From Sitta carolinensis (taxonomy: Eukaryota > Chordata > Aves > Passeriformes > Sittidae), in the NCBI GenBank assembly GCA_032173965.1, contig CM063284.1, positions 129,293,625 through 129,357,624 on the forward strand: a stretch of 64,000 bases of DNA, given 5' to 3'. The position numbers and the translations under genes were made by a program. Positions 3,812 through 58,345 of this stretch are shown here, piece after piece. Positions within the stretch are counted from its first letter, which is position 1. The number at the start of each line of letters is the position of its first letter. Under the pieces are notes generated by a model. It ran no database searches. It had not been told where the DNA came from and saw nothing but the letters and a program-made list of their open reading frames with translations.

Positions 3812-3816
3812 CAAGC
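3812..3816. repeat. Target site duplication, left copy
   Basis: CAAGC directly precedes the first TG of the 5' LTR and recurs exactly after the last CA of the 3' LTR at 10543-10547. A 5-bp duplication is usual for ERVL-type integrases. The intact match shows the two LTRs belong to one insertion that has not recombined with another copy. Confidence 0.93.
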
Positions 3817-4449
3817 TGTCCTAGGGTGATGTTTGTATCCCCATTTATGTGTGTTCTGCTATGTTGGATGTTATGTTCTGTGCCTGTGAGACGGGCTCTG
3901 AAGGACAAATGTTTTGTTTTGGTTCTGTTATCAGCCTGCTTCCCCCCCACGACTGACGGGACACAGAGACGGGGCAGTACATAGTGTGGCTGTTGTTTTT
4001 TGCTGCTCTCTTTTCTCCTTAACTCTAGCTCTGACTGCTGCTTTTGCTCCTGCTCCTGCTTCGCTTCGCTCTTGCTTTGTTTTTTTCCTTTTTTTTTTCT
4101 TTTTTCTTGTAACTACTGAGACCTGCTCCGGACTAAGACCTAAGAACACCTTGTGGCCGGCAACAGCCATCCCCAGCGCCGGAGGGAGTGACAACAAGGC
4201 GACCACCCCCAAGAAAAACTCGCTACATTTGTCATCTCTTTTTCAGAGCTGTGAAAAAGTGTTGTCATCTGGTATTGTTCATTTTGTGTACTGGAGGGGG
4301 GAGGCTGTGCCTGTTAAATAAACAAGTTCTTTCCACTTCTCTCCGAAGAATCATTCCCGAACCGGCTGGGAAGAGAGGCCGTGTAAGTTTGATCTCCAGA
4401 GGGAGCTTCCTTTAGAAGTTTTCTCCCAAATTTGCCCTAAACTAGGACA
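3817..4449 (+). repeat. 5' LTR (unedited copy)
   Basis: 633 bp, beginning TGTCCTAG and ending CTAGGACA, an 8-bp perfect inverted repeat. It carries a polyadenylation signal AATAAA at 4317-4322. A pyrimidine-rich stretch with T and C runs lies at about 4008-4107. I see no clear TATA box, so the U3/R boundary is not assigned. Where this LTR differs from the 3' copy it always has G against A, so it is taken as the near-ancestral version. Confidence 0.95.
4317..4322 (+). promoter_or_regulatory. LTR polyadenylation signal
   Basis: AATAAA, 127 bp before the end of the 5' LTR. The same hexamer is present unchanged in the 3' LTR at 10410-10415, where it would serve transcript 3' end formation. Confidence 0.7.
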
Positions 4450-4454
4450 AAATT

Positions 4455-4472
4455 TGGCGCCCAACGTGGGGC
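4455..4472 (+). other. Primer-binding site, tRNA-Lys1,2
   Basis: TGGCGCCCAACGTGGGGC starts five bases after the 5' LTR end (spacer AAATT). It is the exact 18-base sequence used by retroviruses primed by tRNA-Lys1,2, such as Mason-Pfizer monkey virus and foamy viruses (recalled, not looked up). No base in it looks edited. A frame that opens here at 4454 with TTG is not a real start. Confidence 0.93.
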
Positions 4473-4552
4473 TCGAGAGAGAGTGGAAAAACCCTGTTTT
4501 GAGTATATTTTGGTTGTTACTACTTGGTGGTGGTATAAAGCATTTAATAGTC

Positions 4553-6619
4553 ATGTGCTTTCAATTTATAATGTCTCTTGGGGTGAAGGCTTGCCTGTAT
4601 TTCTGGTCCCTAGGGTTTTTTGAGATCATAATACTTCTATGGTCCCTAGGTTTATTTGCTTATCCTCAAATAGTTCTACTATTGTCCCTAATACGTAGTT
4701 TTTACAGCAGAGGGGCAGTGACCAGAATAGCCATACTGCTGGGCTTGGTGGTGGTGATTTGTAAGAAGTTTATAAATCTGCTGGGGGCTGTTCCAGGTAT
4801 GGATGGTTCATGGCTATGGTTATTTACCCAGATTGTTATGGGAGGAGTAGGGGATGAGGCTTTTCAGTCTTTGCTTTCCTTCTTCTCCTCTGAGTTTGTC
4901 ACATCACTGTTTGAGAATATTCAGTTTCCCCTGAATGTTAAAGAGACTATCTTTCTGGTCTTTAATCTAGTAAACTTCCATTATACAGTCCACAGCTTCT
5001 CTAGAATGAGGGCTGAGATTTCTAGACGGGCTGATGAGACCCCTGACCCAAGAGTAGACCCAGGTGTGGAAAATCCTGAGTGGTGTGGGAAATGGGAGGA
5101 TATGGGCCAAATCCTGAAGGAATTCTCTGACCCTATAGCCTGGGACTTTCCCCATGAACAAATTCAGAACCCAGCTGAGGTAGGGAAATACCTAAAAGAG
5201 AAGTACCATGATGATCCTAAGGAGAAAAAGATCATTGCAGTGAGCTGGGCCCTGGCATATGCTTATCGCACACTGCTAGATACTGTAGAACAGCAGACAG
5301 AAGAAGAGGGGCAGGGAGATACATCAACAGTTATCCCGGTCACTCAGGCTACAGCAAACACCCTGGGCTCAAAGCCAACAGCCAAACCAGATAGTGAGCC
5401 TAAGGCAACAGCTACAGCAGATAATAAGCCTCAACCAATGGCTGTTGCTACTAGCACTCGAAGTAGGAAGTGCACAGACAAGACCGATCGACCAGTGGAT
5501 GATGATGATGATGATGCAGGAGAAGGACCCTCAACACCTCCTGACATAAAATCAGGAGTCAAAACAACAAGTACCAGATCAAAAGCCAATATTGAGTCCT
5601 TTTCCCTGAAGGACCTTCGTGGCCTACGGAAGGACTACACTCGACGACCTGATGAATCTATAATTAGTTGGTTAGTCCATCTTTGGGATGCTACAGGTGA
5701 GGCTACAATTCTGGATGGCACTGAAGCGAGGCATTTGGGATCCCTGTCACATGATCCTGTCATCGACCAAGGAATGATGAGAGGGATTAACCCTCACAGC
5801 CTCTGGGCACGGGTCTTAGAAAGTGTAGCACAAAGATACCTCTGTACAGACAATCTTTATATGCAACAAACACAGTAGAAAACCATAGAACAAGGAATAC
5901 AACACCTGAGAGAAATGGCAGTGGCAGAGATTATCTTCTCAGATGACATAACAACTAAGAATCCAGACATAGTACCATGCACGTCTGTGATGTGGCGAAA
6001 ACTGGTACGACTTGGGCCACAAGAATATGCCTCTGCTTTAGCCATAATGAAGAGGGATGACAAGAATGAGACTGTGCTGGATATGGCAAAGAAGCTCCGA
6101 GCTTACGCAGATACTGTGCATGGCCCAACACATGCCAGAATTGCAGCGGTAGAAACACGTCTGCAAAAATTAGAGGACAAAATAGAAGAAAATCATAAAA
6201 AGCTCAGAGAAGAGATTAAAGAAGACCTTCTCCAAATCTCAACAGTACAGATCAGAAGCTCTGGTACCCAACGCAGACGTTCCCCATATGGAGAGAGAAA
6301 ATACACCCCACGAACTGAACTGTGGTTCTTCCTGCGTGATTGTGGAGAAAACATGAGGAAATGGGATGGAAAACCAACTGCTGCTCTGGCCCAACGGGTG
6401 CGTGAATTGAAAGAAGACAAGGATCAGAGAGGAAGTTCCACCAAAAGGAAAACAGCTCCAGTTGCCCGTAGCCAAACTGCCAAGTATGATGATAATGATG
6501 ACATGTCCGATCCCCTTGAAGGAACCTCCAAAACATATACCCAAGGAAAGAAGGATAACCAGGCTTAGAGGGGCCCTGCCTCTAGCCAGATAGAAGCTAG
6601 GGAAAACCGTGTTTTCTAG
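4553..6619 (+). pseudogene. gag: gag (structural polyprotein) of the ERVL provirus, broken by in-frame stops
   Basis: Gag forms the particle shell. The first in-frame ATG is at 4553, with a second at 4571; either could be the start. The product is unusual at its N terminus: strongly hydrophobic segments at about 4589-4660, 4664-4693, 4724-4765 and 4811-4855 look like several membrane spans, followed by charged sequence, a proline/threonine-rich linker and a run of six Asp codons (5498-5515). The capsid-like part runs from about 5600 through 6115. A heptad-like charged helix at about 6145-6240 looks like a coiled coil. I find no CCHC zinc knuckle. The frame is cut by TAG at 5876-5878; the same frame continues with clear Gag-like sequence, so this is probably a former Trp codon. 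TAG at 6566-6568 and 6617-6619 end the region. One of these may be the natural Gag stop, and I cannot tell which. Confidence 0.85.
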
Positions 6620-6955
6620 ACCGTGTGGATTCGTTGGCCTGGCACATCAGAACCACGAGAGTATACAGCTTTAGTTGACACTAGTGCACAGTGCACATTA
6701 ATCCCATCAAGACATGTGGGGACAGAATCTGTTTCTATTGCTGGTGTGACAGGGGAATCACAGGATTTCACTTTGGTGGAAACTGATGTGAGCCTGACTG
6801 GAAATGAGTGGAAGAAACACCCTATTGTGACTGGCCCAGAGGCCCCATGTATTTTGGGCATAGATTATCTTCGAAGTGGGTATTTCAAAGACCCAAAAGG
6901 ACTCAGGTGGGCATTTGAGATAGCGACTGTAGTGACAGAGAGCATCCAGCAACTG
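6620..6955 (+). pseudogene. pro: Retroviral aspartic protease region of pol, catalytic motif altered
   Basis: This is the N-terminal part of the pol frame and encodes the aspartic protease that cuts Gag and Pol. The motif LVDTSAQCTL sits at 6671-6700, where the family has DTG. The third residue is Ser from AGT at 6683-6685, which a single G-to-A change from GGT would give. The second conserved block, with an ILGIDYL segment, lies near 6850-6870 and looks normal. The frame is open from 6620 to 7300 and is the same frame as gag. Losing the catalytic Gly would be expected to impair the enzyme. Confidence 0.85.
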
Positions 6956-8410
6956 AACACTTTGCCTGGACTGTCCGAAAATCCATCTACAGTAGAACTT
7001 CTGAAGAGAGAAGAGCAACAAGTACCAATTGCTACTTCCATAGTGCATCGTCGACAGTACAGAACAACTCAAGATACTGTGATTCCCATCCATAAAATGA
7101 TCCGAGAACTGAAGAGCCAAGAGGTAGTCAGTAAAACCCACTCACCCTTCAACAGCCCCATCTGGCCTGTGCGCAAATCTGAAGGAGAATGGAGATTGAC
7201 GGTGGACTACCGTGCATTAAATGAAGTGACTCCACCACTGAGTACTGCTGTGCCAGACATATTAGAGCTCCAGTACGAGCTGGAGTCCAAGGCAACGAAG
7301 TGATATGCCACTATTGACATTGCAAATGCATTTTTCTCCATTCCTCTGGCAACAGAATACAGGCCTCAGTTTGCTTTCACGTGAAAGAGAGTACAGTATA
7401 CTTGGAATCGACTGCCCCAAAGGTGGAAGCACAGTCCCACCATCTGCCATAGACTGATCCAGACTGCACTAGAAAAGGGTGAGGCTCCAAAACATCTACA
7501 GTATATTGATGACATCATTGTGTGGGGGAACACGACAGTAGAAGTGTTTGAGAAAGGAGAGAAAATTATCCAAATCCTCCTGAAAGCTGGTTTCGCCATC
7601 AAAAAGAGTAAAGTCAAGGGACCAGCTCGTGAGATTCAGTTCCTAGGAGTAAAGTGGCAAGATGGACGGCGTCAGATTCCTACGGATGTCATCAATAAGA
7701 TTACAGCTATATCTCCACCAACCAATAAGAAGGAAACACAAGCTTTCCTAGGCGCCATAAGTTTTTGGAGAATGCACATTCCTGAATACAGTCAAATCGT
7801 AAGCCCTCTTTACCTAGTCACCCACAAGAAGAACGATTTCCACTAGGGCCCTAAGCAACAACAAACTTTTGCCCAGATTAAACAGGAGATCGCTCATGCG
7901 GTGGCCCTTGGCCCAGTCAGGACAAGACCAGAGGTAAAGAATGTGCTCTACTCTACAACCGGGAGCCATAGTCTGTCCTAGAACCTTTGGCAAAAGGTGC
8001 CTGGGAAGACTCGGGGTCGACCATTGGGATTTTAGAGTCGAGGCTACAAGGGGTCTGAATCCAACTACACTCCAACAGAAAAAGAAATCTTAACTACTTA
8101 CGAAGGAGTCCAAGCTGCCTCAGAAGTGATTGGTACAGAAGTGCAACTCCTTCTGGCACCCCGACTACCGGTACTGGGGTGGATGTTCAAAGACAAGATT
8201 CCTTCTACCCACCATGCCACCAGTGCTACATGGAGCAAGTGGATTGCTCTTCTCACACAGCGCGCCCGTATAGGTAAACTAAATCGCCCTGGGATTCTGG
8301 AGGCAATTACAAATTGGCCCGAAGGTGAGAATTTTGATGTCAGAGATGAAGAAGAAGAGCCAGTGACACGGGCTCAAGAAGCTCCTCCATATAACCAACT
8401 GCCCCCAGAG
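6956..8410 (+). pseudogene. pol: Reverse transcriptase region of pol, multiple in-frame stops
   Basis: RNA-directed DNA polymerase. The fingers motif with NSPIWPVRKS is at about 7150-7180, the first catalytic Asp codon at 7316-7318, and YIDD at 7502-7513, so the catalytic aspartates remain. The LPQG motif reads LPQR (AGG at 7421-7423), another G-to-A class change. In-frame stops are TGA 7301, TGA 7382, TAG 7844, TAG 7979 and TAG 8033. No frameshift occurs: every block between stops resumes in the same frame with recognisable RT sequence, such as FLGAISFWRMHIPEY after 7740. The thumb and connection region runs to about 8410. Confidence 0.9.
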
Positions 8411-8800
8411 GAAACACGCTATGCTCTTTTCACTGACGGTTCCTGTCGTATTGTAAGGATGAACCGGAAGTGGAAAGCAACTGTCTAAAGCCCCACACGA
8501 CAGGTCGCAGAAGCCATTGAGGGAGAAAGTGGGTCAAACCAACTTACAGAGCTCAAAACCGTTCAACTGACCCTAGACATTGCTGAAAGAGAAAGGTGGC
8601 CAAAGCTCTACCTCTACACTAATTCATGGATGGTAGCCAATGCTCTGTGGGGATGGCTGGAGAGGTAAAAAAAAGCTCACTGGCAACGTAGAGGAAAACC
8701 AATTTGAGCTACTGAAGAGTAGAAAGACATCGCTACCAGAGTAAAGAGGCTACCTATGAAAGTCCACCATGTAGATGCCCATGTCCCCAAAAGTAGAGCT
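8411..8800 (+). pseudogene. pol: RNase H domain of pol, catalytic Asp changed and stops present
   Basis: RNase H degrades the RNA strand during reverse transcription. The first catalytic Asp is in FTDGSC (GAC at 8435-8437). The Glu is GAG at 8549-8551. The third acidic position, in an LYTNSW context, reads Asn (AAT at 8621-8623), where the family has Asp; GAT to AAT is a G-to-A change. The last Asp is in HVDAH (8774-8776). Stops are TAA 8486, TAA 8666, TGA 8705 and TAG 8720, all in one frame and all reachable from TGG by G-to-A. Confidence 0.88.
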
Positions 8801-9748
8801 AATGAGGAGCACCAAAACAACAATCAGGTAAATCAGGCTGCAAAGATAAAGGTGTCCAAAATAGATCTAGACTAGAAACACAAAGGAGAGTTATTCCTAG
8901 CTCGATAGGCCCATGATACCTCAGGCCATCAGGGTAGAGATGCCACCTATAAGTAGACTCGAGACCGAAGGGTGGATTTAACCATAGATAGCATTTCTCA
9001 AGTTATCCACGACTGTGAGACATGTACTGCCATCAAGCAAGCCAAAAAGGTGAAGCCCCTCTAGTATGGGGGGCGATAGTCCAAATACAAGTATAGAGAG
9101 ACCTAACAGGTTAACTACATCACACTACCCCAAACACGTCAAGACAAACACTACATACTCACAATAGTAGAAGCCACCACAGGATAGTTAGAGACCTACC
9201 CTACATCTCATGCCACTGCCCAGAACACCATCCTAGACCTTAAAAAACAAGTCCTTTAAAGGCATAGTACCCCTGAGAGAATTGAGTCAGACAATGGGAC
9301 TCATTTTAAGAACAGTCTTATCAACACCTGGGCTAGGGAACATGGCATCGAGTGGGTGTATCATATTCCCTACCATACACCAGCTACAGGTAAAGTAGAA
9401 AAGTACAACAGATTACTAAAAACCCAGCTGAAGGCCTTGGGTGGGGGATCTTTCAAAAATTAGGAACAACATCTAGCAAAAGCCACTTAGTTAGTTAACA
9501 CTCGGGGTTCCACCAACCAAACAAGTCCTACCCAGTCTGAGTCCTTAAATACAACAGACAGAGATAAAGTCCCAGTAGTGCATGTCAGAGGTTTGTTAGG
9601 GAAGACGGTGTAGATCAAGTCTGCCTCGAGTACAGACAAACCCATCCGCGGGGTTGTCTTTGCTCAGGGACCAGGTTGCACCTGGTAGGTAATGCAAAGA
9701 GATGAATCAACACGATATGTACCTCAGGAAGATCTGATTGTAGGGTGA
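8801..9748 (+). pseudogene. pol: Integrase domain of pol, dense stops and altered first catalytic Asp
   Basis: Integrase inserts the cDNA into host DNA. The zinc finger His codons are at 8912 and 8927 and the Cys codons at 9014 and 9023. The catalytic triad is spaced as usual: position one at 9113-9115 (now AAC, Asn), Asp at 9290-9292 in SDNGTHF, and Glu at 9398-9400, 35 residues later. The first Asp has become Asn by a GAC-to-AAC change. In-frame stops occur at 8873, 8906, 8954, 9062, 9077, 9104, 9185, 9257, 9461, 9488, 9611 and 9686, all TAG or TAA. The frame ends at TGA 9746-9748, which may be the natural end of pol or another altered codon. No env follows. Confidence 0.9.
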
Positions 9749-9774
9749 AGATAATCAATATTTGTTGGAAAATG

Positions 9775-9849
9775 TGTAAGTGTCGAAGGTCTGGGCAAGT
9801 GAAAAAATGGAGAAGGAAACATGTAAGTGTCGAAGGTCTAAGCAAGTGA
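9775..9849 (+). repeat. Pair of 28-bp direct repeats between pol and the 3' LTR
   Basis: Copies at 9775-9802 and 9822-9849, 47 bp apart start to start. They are identical except for two adjacent positions, where the first copy has GG and the second AA (9840-9841). The repeat lies in the short untranslated stretch before the polypurine tract. Its role is unknown. Confidence 0.85.
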
Positions 9850-9892
9850 CAGATAGAAGTTTTAAAATGTATGATGTGTGGTAGTATAATAT

Positions 9893-9909
9893 GGGGATAA
9901 GGGGTGGAA
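9893..9909 (+). other. Polypurine tract
   Basis: A purine-rich run (GGGGATAAGGGGTGGAA) directly abuts the first base of the 3' LTR, the position where plus-strand DNA synthesis is primed. It has two T interruptions. The G runs here are not edited, as expected if this segment stays annealed to RNA. Confidence 0.75.
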
Positions 9910-10542
9910 TGTCCTAGGGTGATGTTTGTATCCCCATTTATGTGTGTTCTGCTATGTTGGATGTTATGTTCTGTGCCTGTGAGACGGGCTCTGAAGGACA
10001 AATGTTTTGTTTTGGTTCTGTTATCAGCCTACTTCCCCCCCCACGACTAACGGGACACAGAGACGGGGCAGTACATAGTGTGGCTGTTGTTTTTTGCTGC
10101 TCTCTTTTCTCCTTAACTCTAGCTCTGACTACTACTTTTACTCCTACTCCTGCTTCGCTTCGCTCTTGCTTTGTTTTTTTCCTTTTTTTTTCTTTTTTCT
10201 TGTAACTACTGAGACCTACTCCGGACTAAGACCTAAGAACACCTTGTAGCCGGCAACAGCCATCCCCAGCGCCGGAGGGAGTAACAACAAGGCGACCACC
10301 CCCAAAAAAAACTCACTACATTTGTCATCTCTTTTTCAGAACTGTAAAAAAGTGTTGTCATCTGGTATTGTTCATTTTGTGTACTGGAGAGGGGAGGCTG
10401 TACCTATTAAATAAACAAATTCTTTCCACTTCTCTCCGAAGAATCATTCCCGAACCGGCTGGGAAGAGAGGCCGTGTAAGTTTGATCTCCAGAGAGAACT
10501 TCCTTTAGAAATTTTCTCCCAAATTTGCCCTAAACTAGGACA
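9910..10542 (+). repeat. 3' LTR (G-to-A edited copy)
   Basis: 633 bp, aligned end to end with the 5' LTR. There are 20 substitutions, all G in the 5' copy and A here: 10031, 10049, 10131, 10134, 10140, 10146, 10218, 10248, 10283, 10306, 10315, 10341, 10346, 10390, 10402, 10406, 10419, 10495, 10498 and 10511. One C-run is a base longer and one T-run a base shorter. The first 121 bases carry no change. AATAAA is intact at 10410-10415. Confidence 0.95.
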
Positions 10543-10547
10543 CAAGC
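10543..10547. repeat. Target site duplication, right copy
   Basis: CAAGC, an exact match to 3812-3816. Confidence 0.93.
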
Positions 10548-57524: not shown

Positions 57525-58054
57525 CTGGGGCCGAGGTTTCTCATCAAACTTCTAACACTGGTGCCTCTGCTCATGATTGTGGATAGAATGCTACCAACCC
57601 CCTCCAAATCATTCCATGAACTTACTGGGGAGAACCCAAAGTCTGATATATCAAGTATATTTTTACCATAGCCTCACAGAAGAATTTTACTGCCTAAGCT
57701 TATGACAAACTTTTCAAAATCCCTTCAATCTAAAATCTAACTCTTTTCTTACTGACTTCAATTTCATGTGGTTGTTCTTACAAAGTTTCACCTCCCTTTT
57801 GTCTTAGCCTTAGAGAGAATTAGTGCTCTTCCAGTATGAAGTTTTGTAATGCTGAGAAAAAAAAAGTCAGTTTCGTCCAAGTCTTGTATCAGAAACAAGC
57901 TCTCTTTCTCTTTGCGTCTTTTTGATGGCCACTGCTCTTTTGCCAACTCCATGTGAGCTGTGCTGGCTGCTCCCAGTCTGGAACAGGGCTCAGGGCTGCT
58001 TGTGGCTTCAGGGCCACCTTTAGCACGAACTATGGGAGGCCACTGGTGCTGGTG

Positions 58055-58345
58055 CCCATGCTCAGCTCCTTTGGTGCCCATCCAGGTGCTGTCCCCATGC
58101 TCAGTTCCTTTGGTGCCCATACAGGTGCTGTCCCCATGCTCAGCTCCTTTGGTGCCCATCCAGGTGCTGTCCCCATGCTCAGCTCCTCTGGTGCCCATCC
58201 AGGTGCTGTCCCCATGCTCAGCTCCTTTGGTGCCCACACAGGTGCTGTCCCCATGCTCAGCTCCTTTGGTGCCCATCCAGGTGCTGTCCCCATGCTCAGC
58301 TCCTTTGGTGTCCATACAGGTGCTGTCCCCATGCTCAGCCGCTCC
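58055..58345. repeat. 39-bp minisatellite, about 7.5 copies
   Basis: A tandem array with unit length 39. Each unit contains GGTGCCCATCCAGGTGCTGT followed by CCCCATGCTCAGCTCCTTT, with a few point variants (CATCCAGG against CATACAGG or CACACAGG; TCCTTT against TCCTCT). Variants alternate along the array in a pattern close to a two-unit, 78-bp higher-order period. The final unit diverges into the GC-rich sequence. Confidence 0.95.

What the first reader, a model, noticed from the sequence alone, without database searches (positions are those of the whole stretch)
3817..10542. All 20 LTR-LTR substitutions are G (5') to A (3')
Aligning the two 633-bp LTRs base by base gives 20 substitutions, and every one is G in the 5' copy and A in the 3' copy. 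There is no C-to-T, no A-to-G and no transversion. Only one of the 20 is a CpG site, so methylation decay does not explain it. With zero other substitutions the insertion must be young, so the 3% divergence would give a badly wrong LTR-based age. This is the signature of cytidine deamination of retroviral minus-strand cDNA.
Basis: partly seen in the sequence, partly recalled or inferred. Interest (0 to 1): 0.88.

Follow-up and report, generated by a model that had tools for sequence, protein, structure and literature searches.

The report
Retrovirus copy caught mid-editing
A retrovirus copy in what is likely a songbird genome differs from its relatives almost only by G-to-A changes, 20 of them confined to its right-hand repeat, which were likely made by a host DNA-editing enzyme while the virus was being copied into DNA, so dating it by its two repeats would likely give a far too old age.

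Summary
Confirmed: the two 633-bp LTRs differ at 20 sites, all G (5') to A (3'), plus two 1-base indels. But the 5' LTR is edited too: against 35 related LTR sequences it has 23 G-to-A changes, all shared with the 3' LTR. Internally 186 of 1447 G read A, from 2/147 at the 5' end to 45/156 near the 3' end; 3 of 6556 compared positions differ otherwise. Best reading: a deaminase edited minus-strand cDNA in two phases, before and after the 5' LTR was copied off it. The bias recurs: 27 other LTR pairs give G>A 569, A>G 11. Five of these pairs carry a mirror mark, C-to-T in the 5' LTR in the same CC/GC context; in the three rich in both marks, C-to-T lies upstream of G-to-A, as if two displacement fronts had met. 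The context fits AID poorly; three APOBEC1-like genes nearby are the predicted source. 3'-LTR-only G-to-A was reported in mouse in 2025; my searches listed no report of the mirror mark or switch.

The parts
3812..3816 (.). target-site duplication CAAGC, left
   Evidence: direct sequence
3817..4449 (+). 5' LTR; 23 of 169 family G positions read A, all 23 shared with the 3' LTR
4450..5050 (+). lowest G>A density of the element, 2 of 147 G, directly beside the edited 5' LTR
4455..4472 (+). primer-binding site, Lys-type (name recalled); one of two main PBS variants in the family
5051..9909 (+). internal coding region, G>A rising unevenly to 45 of 156 G at 8801-9350; 22 stops within 6569-9746 that the commonest letters of relatives lack (7451-7619 not scored)
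7385..7843 (+). reverse transcriptase domain piece (RVT_1)
9260..9460 (+). integrase core piece (rve, E = 2.9e-5, below Pfam's cut-off score)
9910..10542 (+). 3' LTR; 43 of 169 G positions read A: 23 shared with the 5' LTR, 20 only here
10543..10547 (.). target-site duplication CAAGC, right

Best explanation
This is a provirus whose G-to-A changes were likely made by a host cytidine deaminase acting on the single-stranded cDNA during the one round of reverse transcription that made this copy, first on the minus strand before the plus-strand strong-stop DNA was copied from it (23 changes seen in both LTRs) and again on the 3'-LTR minus strand once it was re-exposed (20 changes seen only in the 3' LTR). 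Shown: the changes, their polarity against relatives, their context (minus-strand CC and GC), the gradient, the drop from 23/169 to 2/147 across the LTR-PBS border, and the same one-sidedness in other copies. Inferred: the order of events. In the model the 5' LTR is a copy of the 3'-LTR minus strand taken midway, so it inherits early changes only. Two displacement fronts then open the LTRs: the extending minus strand frees the U5 side of the 3'-LTR minus strand (G-to-A there), the extending plus strand frees the U3 end of the strong-stop strand (C-to-T in the 5' LTR); five other copies show the latter. The enzyme is predicted to be one of three APOBEC1-like proteins encoded beside AID; its identity is untested.
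For:: 252 G>A site-copies (229 sites if one event each: 186 internal, 23 shared, 20 3'-only) against 3 other differences in 6556 positions; internal gradient Spearman p = 1.3e-10; 5' LTR 23/169 versus 4450-5050 2/147, p = 3e-5; in 13 of the 14 other pairs of the window's LTR family, polarised by relatives: both 123, 3'-only 198, 5'-only 3; 3'-only rate along the LTR goes unevenly from 0.13 in the first tenth to 0.36 in the last; 27 pairs, G>A 569, A>G 11; 24 of 27 pairs in the predicted direction, 1 reverse, 2 ties. C-to-T in the 5' LTR of the five rich pairs has context CC 22/174, GC 17/134, TC 6/174, AC 0/148 (p = 8e-8), the same preference as on the minus strand (plus-strand GG 115/543, GC 77/359, GA 46/513, GT 14/364). 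C-to-T lies upstream of G-to-A in the three pairs with at least five of each, order index 0.99, 1.00, 0.91, permutation p 5e-5, 5e-5, 1e-3; at one U3 site of the second LTR family, T in 3 of 13 5' LTRs and 0 of 13 3' LTRs; three genes with HAE and PCxxC motifs beside AID, nearest solved or named relatives APOBEC1.
Against: The C-to-T mark rests on five of 27 pairs; in the rest T>C and C>T are equal, 11 and 11. The window itself shows no C-to-T mark and so no switch. L080/L081 is the least clean switch case (one G>A far upstream), and eight pairs with only one or two T/C sites show no order (index 0.19-0.76). Of 37 copies examined 8 gave no pair and 2 aligned outside either LTR family. Five of the 23 shared A states also occur in some relative, so part of them could be inherited. 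The 3' third is compared with only 3-6 copies. WRC sites show a weak excess (p = 0.04; internal region alone 0.007), which AID would give. No deaminase was assayed.
Confidence: 0.9

Rival explanations
1. The changes came after integration, by ordinary mutation or methyl-CpG decay.
For: Old insertions do accumulate G>A and C>T (general knowledge).
Against: No C>T partner changes between the LTRs, 1 of 20 sites at a CpG, strand-specific gradient, 3 other differences in 6556 positions.
Confidence: 0.01
2. The 23 shared changes were inherited from an already edited parent copy, and only the 20 3'-only ones are from this round.
For: Such a parent-daughter case is described in mouse (Mtv17/Mtv23, PMC12548423, passages). 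Five of the 23 shared A states occur in at least one of 35 related sequences.
Against: 18 of 23 are in none of the 35; inheritance does not by itself predict the drop to 2/147 right after the 5' LTR. The relatives held are the best-scoring ones, so an edited parent could have been missed.
Confidence: 0.07
3. Gene conversion by a clean copy erased part of the edits from the 5' LTR.
For: Would also give G in the 5' copy.
Against: It would have to favour the 5' LTR in 24 of 27 pairs; in the window shared and 3'-only sites alternate in 22 runs over 43 sites, not in blocks.
Confidence: 0.02
4. The deaminase was AID rather than an APOBEC1-like enzyme.
For: An AID-like gene is present (name by my reading of the sequence). 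The 20 3'-only sites of the window alone are rich in minus-strand AGC, and WRC sites have a weak excess over the element, 69/395 versus 183/1384, p = 0.04, internal region alone p = 0.007.
Against: Minus-strand AC sites are the least edited (14/364) though WRC (motif recalled) includes them, and CC, outside WRC, is among the two most edited (115/543).
Confidence: 0.1

Closest known systems
3'-LTR-specific G>A in endogenous mouse mammary tumor viruses (PMC12548423, 2025; passages and part 1 of 2 of the Discussion read)
   Same: Shared changes in both LTRs of four Mtvs plus 13, 16, 2 and 9 LTR differences, all but one G>A unique to the 3' LTR; same explanation by a second single-stranded phase; same warning on LTR dating.
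   Different: Mouse APOBEC3, LTRs over 1300 bp, four Mtvs plus a few MLVs. Here a likely songbird in which my one family search showed no APOBEC3-like gene, LTRs of about 633-680 bp, 27 pairs, and a C-to-T mirror mark that the parts I read do not mention.
APOBEC editing of LTR retrotransposons in zebra finch (Knisbacher and Levanon 2016; not held; seen only as cited in PMC6523648 and PMC12548423)
   Same: G>A edited LTR elements in a songbird.
   Different: I could not read whether LTR pairs, strand order or the enzyme were treated.
G-to-A gradient in endogenous MLVs (PMC2041998; passages, some from the abstract)
   Same: 5'-to-3' rising G-to-A between PBS and PPT, strand bias, pre-integration; several PBS types in one family.
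   Different: Mouse APOBEC3, context TTC; the term LTR occurs 0 times in its held main text.
Lizard APOBEC1 as DNA mutator and retroelement inhibitor (PMC3880073; passages)
   Same: An APOBEC1 of a non-mammal that mutates DNA; the paper notes a zebra finch A1.
   Different: LINE elements; it found no LTR editing in lizard.

Membership tests
APOBEC-type retroviral hypermutation | large excess of plus-strand G>A over all other changes against relatives | tested here: met
   252 versus 3
APOBEC-type retroviral hypermutation | preferred sequence context of the deaminated C | tested here: met
   minus-strand CC 0.212, GC 0.214, TC 0.090, AC 0.038
APOBEC-type retroviral hypermutation | gradient following single-strand exposure | tested here: met
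APOBEC-type retroviral hypermutation | changes stop at the provirus border | not tested
   no second allele of the flanks was available
mouse-type 3'-LTR-specific editing | LTR differences are G>A unique to the 3' LTR, with further shared edits | tested here: met
   window 23 shared, 20 3'-only, 0 5'-only; 13 other pairs 123, 198, 3
AID-type editing | WRC hotspot preference (motif recalled) | tested here: not met
   AC least edited, 14/364, and CC among the most, 115/543; a weak WRC excess exists, p = 0.04
mammalian APOBEC3 editing | an APOBEC3 gene in the host | tested here: inconclusive
   one family search (PF08210, exon by exon) found AID-like, three APOBEC1-like and one APOBEC2-like gene; for the four exons scanned the APOBEC3 model was never the best
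APOBEC1-like DNA editing | the host's APOBEC1-like enzyme deaminates ssDNA at CC/GC | not testable with these tools
   needs an enzyme assay

The most novel reading that the evidence does not exclude
LTR pairs of hypermutated proviruses are freeze-frames of the last step of reverse transcription: the point in the LTR where 5'-LTR C-to-T gives way to 3'-LTR G-to-A marks where the plus-strand and minus-strand displacement fronts met while a songbird APOBEC1-like enzyme was at work, so the position of the fronts can be read, copy by copy, from a genome.
Probability: 0.5. Interest if true: 0.8.

Novelty: new variant of a known kind. Interest (0 to 1): 0.62.

Why it matters
It shows in a natural sample of 27 pairs that LTR-LTR differences can be made before integration and point one way, so LTR dating fails for edited copies and direction alone flags them. 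It extends a mouse APOBEC3 observation to a likely songbird, which points at APOBEC1-like proteins as a possible retroelement defence there. The C-to-T mirror and the single switch, if they hold in more copies, give a way to read strand-displacement intermediates of reverse transcription from genomes.

Tried and rejected
Two enzymes for the two phases: in the window shared sites favour GG (15 GG, 3 GC) and 3'-only sites GC (4 GG, 10 GC), p = 0.003, but 13 other pairs show no such difference (p = 0.55); dropped. AID as the enzyme from the AGC look of the 20 sites: not upheld over the element. Ranking copies by similarity did not bring up clearly edited relatives; a degenerate pattern did. Polarity of L070/L071 against a control LTR of the window's family could not be set, as the two did not align. 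The U3 C-to-T pattern found 5 LTRs, but three of them (L050, L070, L072) are those it was typed from; of the two new ones L141 is a 5' LTR with a PBS and a partner carrying 2 T/C sites, and the one on C15 has no PBS and no partner at about 6 kb on either side, so it is taken as solo. So that search adds one independent case only. Pairs L084/L085 and L108/L109 align outside both LTR families and are left out of the 27; with them the sums are 29 pairs, G>A 570, A>G 17, T>C 61, C>T 14, transversions 62. Eight of 37 copies gave no alignment (L052, L062, L064, L068, L100, L104, L122, L128). Of 48 copies other than the window that I saw with at least one A at the pattern, I fetched 37; the 11 left out have one A, one of them two. 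Paper look-ups and searches that failed: not held; terms not accepted.
Full report
What was checked. The LTRs 3817-4449 and 9910-10542 differ at 20 sites, all G in the 5' copy and A in the 3' copy, with two further 1-base indels in homopolymers; the element is bordered by CAAGC on both sides. The window lies on contig C4 of an assembly of 1.03 Gb. Of 38 protein relatives of the APOBEC1-like exon L048, 32 carry an organism name, all passerine birds by my recall, and 6 carry none, so a songbird is likely.

The 5' LTR is edited too. Against 35 related LTR sequences the 5' LTR has 23 G-to-A changes and no other change from the commonest letter; the 3' LTR has 43. Per site: 23 in both LTRs, 20 in the 3' LTR only, 0 in the 5' LTR only; with a single natural LTR (L003) as yardstick the count is the same and the two kinds alternate in 22 runs. 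Eighteen of the 23 are in none of the 35. Over 6556 compared positions there are 252 G-to-A site-copies and three other differences. Two of these three are in the primer-binding site, which has two main variants in the family (24 loci have one; 7 loci and the window have the other; 1 has a third); copying of different tRNA primers would give this (inference).

Gradient and border. G-to-A per G runs 2/147, 10/159, 18/158, 15/171, 24/158, 23/158, 23/169, 45/156, 26/171 from 4450 to 9909 (7451-7619 not scored), with the 5' LTR at 23/169 and the 3' LTR at 43/169. Internal Spearman p = 1.3e-10; 5' LTR against its neighbour p = 3e-5. The 5' LTR thus has the level of the far half of the element, not of its neighbour. 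Reverse transcription predicts this, since the 5' LTR plus strand is copied from the 3'-end minus strand (established knowledge of retroviral strand transfer). The number of related sequences is 28-35 in the LTRs and up to 7450, and 3-6 between 7620 and 9909.

Context. On the plus strand GG 115/543, GC 77/359, GA 46/513, GT 14/364. So the deaminated minus-strand C is preceded mostly by C or G. AID's WRC (recalled) fits poorly, as AC is the least used and CC among the most; a weak WRC excess exists (p = 0.04).

Other copies. A degenerate 35-base pattern at 9091-9125 finds 243 copies in the genome; of the 100 listed, 27 (the window among them) have at least one A at its R places and 73 none. Of 48 other copies that I saw with an A there I took 37, without regard to their LTRs, and compared their LTR pairs: 29 aligned, 27 of them LTRs, 14 of the window's family and 13 of a second family attached to the same internal region. 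In the 27: G>A 569, A>G 11, T>C 56, C>T 12, transversions 53; 24 pairs in the predicted direction, 1 reverse, 2 ties. Eight control pairs: G>A 2, A>G 1. In 13 of the 14 pairs of the window's LTR family (L116, aligned over 302 bp only, left out), polarised by relatives: both 123, 3'-only 198, 5'-only 3.

The mirror mark. Five of the 27 pairs have 5-20 sites with T in the 5' LTR and C in the 3' LTR (45 of the 56); the remaining pairs are balanced, 11 to 11. Their context is CC 22/174, GC 17/134, TC 6/174, AC 0/148, the same preference on the other strand. At one U3 site of the second family T stands in 3 of 13 5' LTRs and in 0 of 13 3' LTRs, so C is the likely older state. In the three pairs with at least five of each mark the C-to-T sites lie upstream: L050 32-210 against 201-699, L072 4-97 against 182-667, L080 4-555 against 164 and then 582-615 (alignment positions); permutation p 5e-5, 5e-5, 1e-3. 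Eight pairs with one or two such sites show no order. A genome search for the U3 change found five LTRs, three of them those the pattern came from; the one new paired copy has it in its 5' LTR, the other new one is likely solo. The 3'-only G-to-A rate rises unevenly towards U5, 29/219 in the first tenth to 75/210 in the last.

Mechanism. Early deamination of minus-strand DNA gives the gradient and the shared LTR changes. After the second strand transfer the minus strand, copying the strong-stop DNA from the PBS side, displaces the 3'-LTR minus strand from its U5 end; the plus strand, arriving from the PPT side, displaces the U3 end of the strong-stop strand. Each freed strand can be deaminated, giving 3'-LTR G-to-A on the U5 side and 5'-LTR C-to-T on the U3 side, with one switch between. 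The strand-transfer steps are established; their application here is inference from the patterns above. In the window only the G-to-A mark is seen.

Enzyme. A Pfam APOBEC_N search of the genome finds an AID-like gene (three exon matches), three more genes within about 50 kb on C1, and one gene on C31; the names AID and APOBEC2 are my reading of the translations. The three keep HAE and PCxxC. Several AID/APOBEC Pfam models match them: L046 best APOBEC4_like, then APOBEC1; L047 and L048 best SNAD4, with APOBEC1 lower. The best solved relative of the two tested, L046 and L048, is human APOBEC1, and named relatives of L048 are called APOBEC-1-like or ABEC1. That one of them is the editor is predicted, not tested.

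Age. No LTR substitution other than G-to-A means a likely young insertion; 20/633 taken at face value would be 3.2% divergence. No rate was measured here and no age is given.

Consequence. By the commonest letters of relatives the frame is open over 6569-9746 (unscored gap aside) and the window has 22 stops in it; over 4451-6566 it has one. Whether any single copy is open throughout was not checked.

Prior work. PMC12548423 (passages; Discussion part 1) reports G>A unique to the 3' LTR in four Mtvs, explains it by a second single-stranded phase and calls it a first. PMC2041998 (passages) reports the gradient in MLVs. PMC6523648 (passages) cites strong APOBEC editing in zebra finch by Knisbacher and Levanon 2016, a paper not held. 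Plus-strand C-to-T in HIV is recalled, not seen. For the 5'-LTR C-to-T mark and the switch in endogenous copies my ten searches (49 and 76 nearest to the point; read as listings) showed no report; most subscription papers are outside that library.

Noticed in passing
L047 and L048 (genome C1:73006300-73007200 and C1:73021900-73022800): Two APOBEC1-like genes differ by 21 of 130 residues, with 35 nucleotide differences in changed codons and 5 in silent ones; the changes cluster just before HAE and at residues 100-106 after ARLYYP (the loop that sets DNA context in relatives, recalled). Likely diversifying selection on the recognition loops.
   Followed up: partly
4455-4472: The family's primer-binding site has two main variants, differing at two positions, spread over near-identical copies; likely priming by two tRNA-Lys types.
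   Followed up: partly
4451-9746: By the commonest letters of relatives two long open stretches lie in one frame with a stop between them, which would fit stop read-through rather than frameshift; there is no room for an envelope gene between 9746 and the 3' LTR, so the element likely spreads inside cells.
   Followed up: no
L050-L118, second LTR family: The same internal stretch is attached to a little-similar LTR of about 670 bp in 13 of the 27 pairs, so LTRs were likely swapped in this lineage.
   Followed up: partly
58045-58339: 39-bp tandem repeat, 7.5 copies, 94% matches.
   Followed up: no
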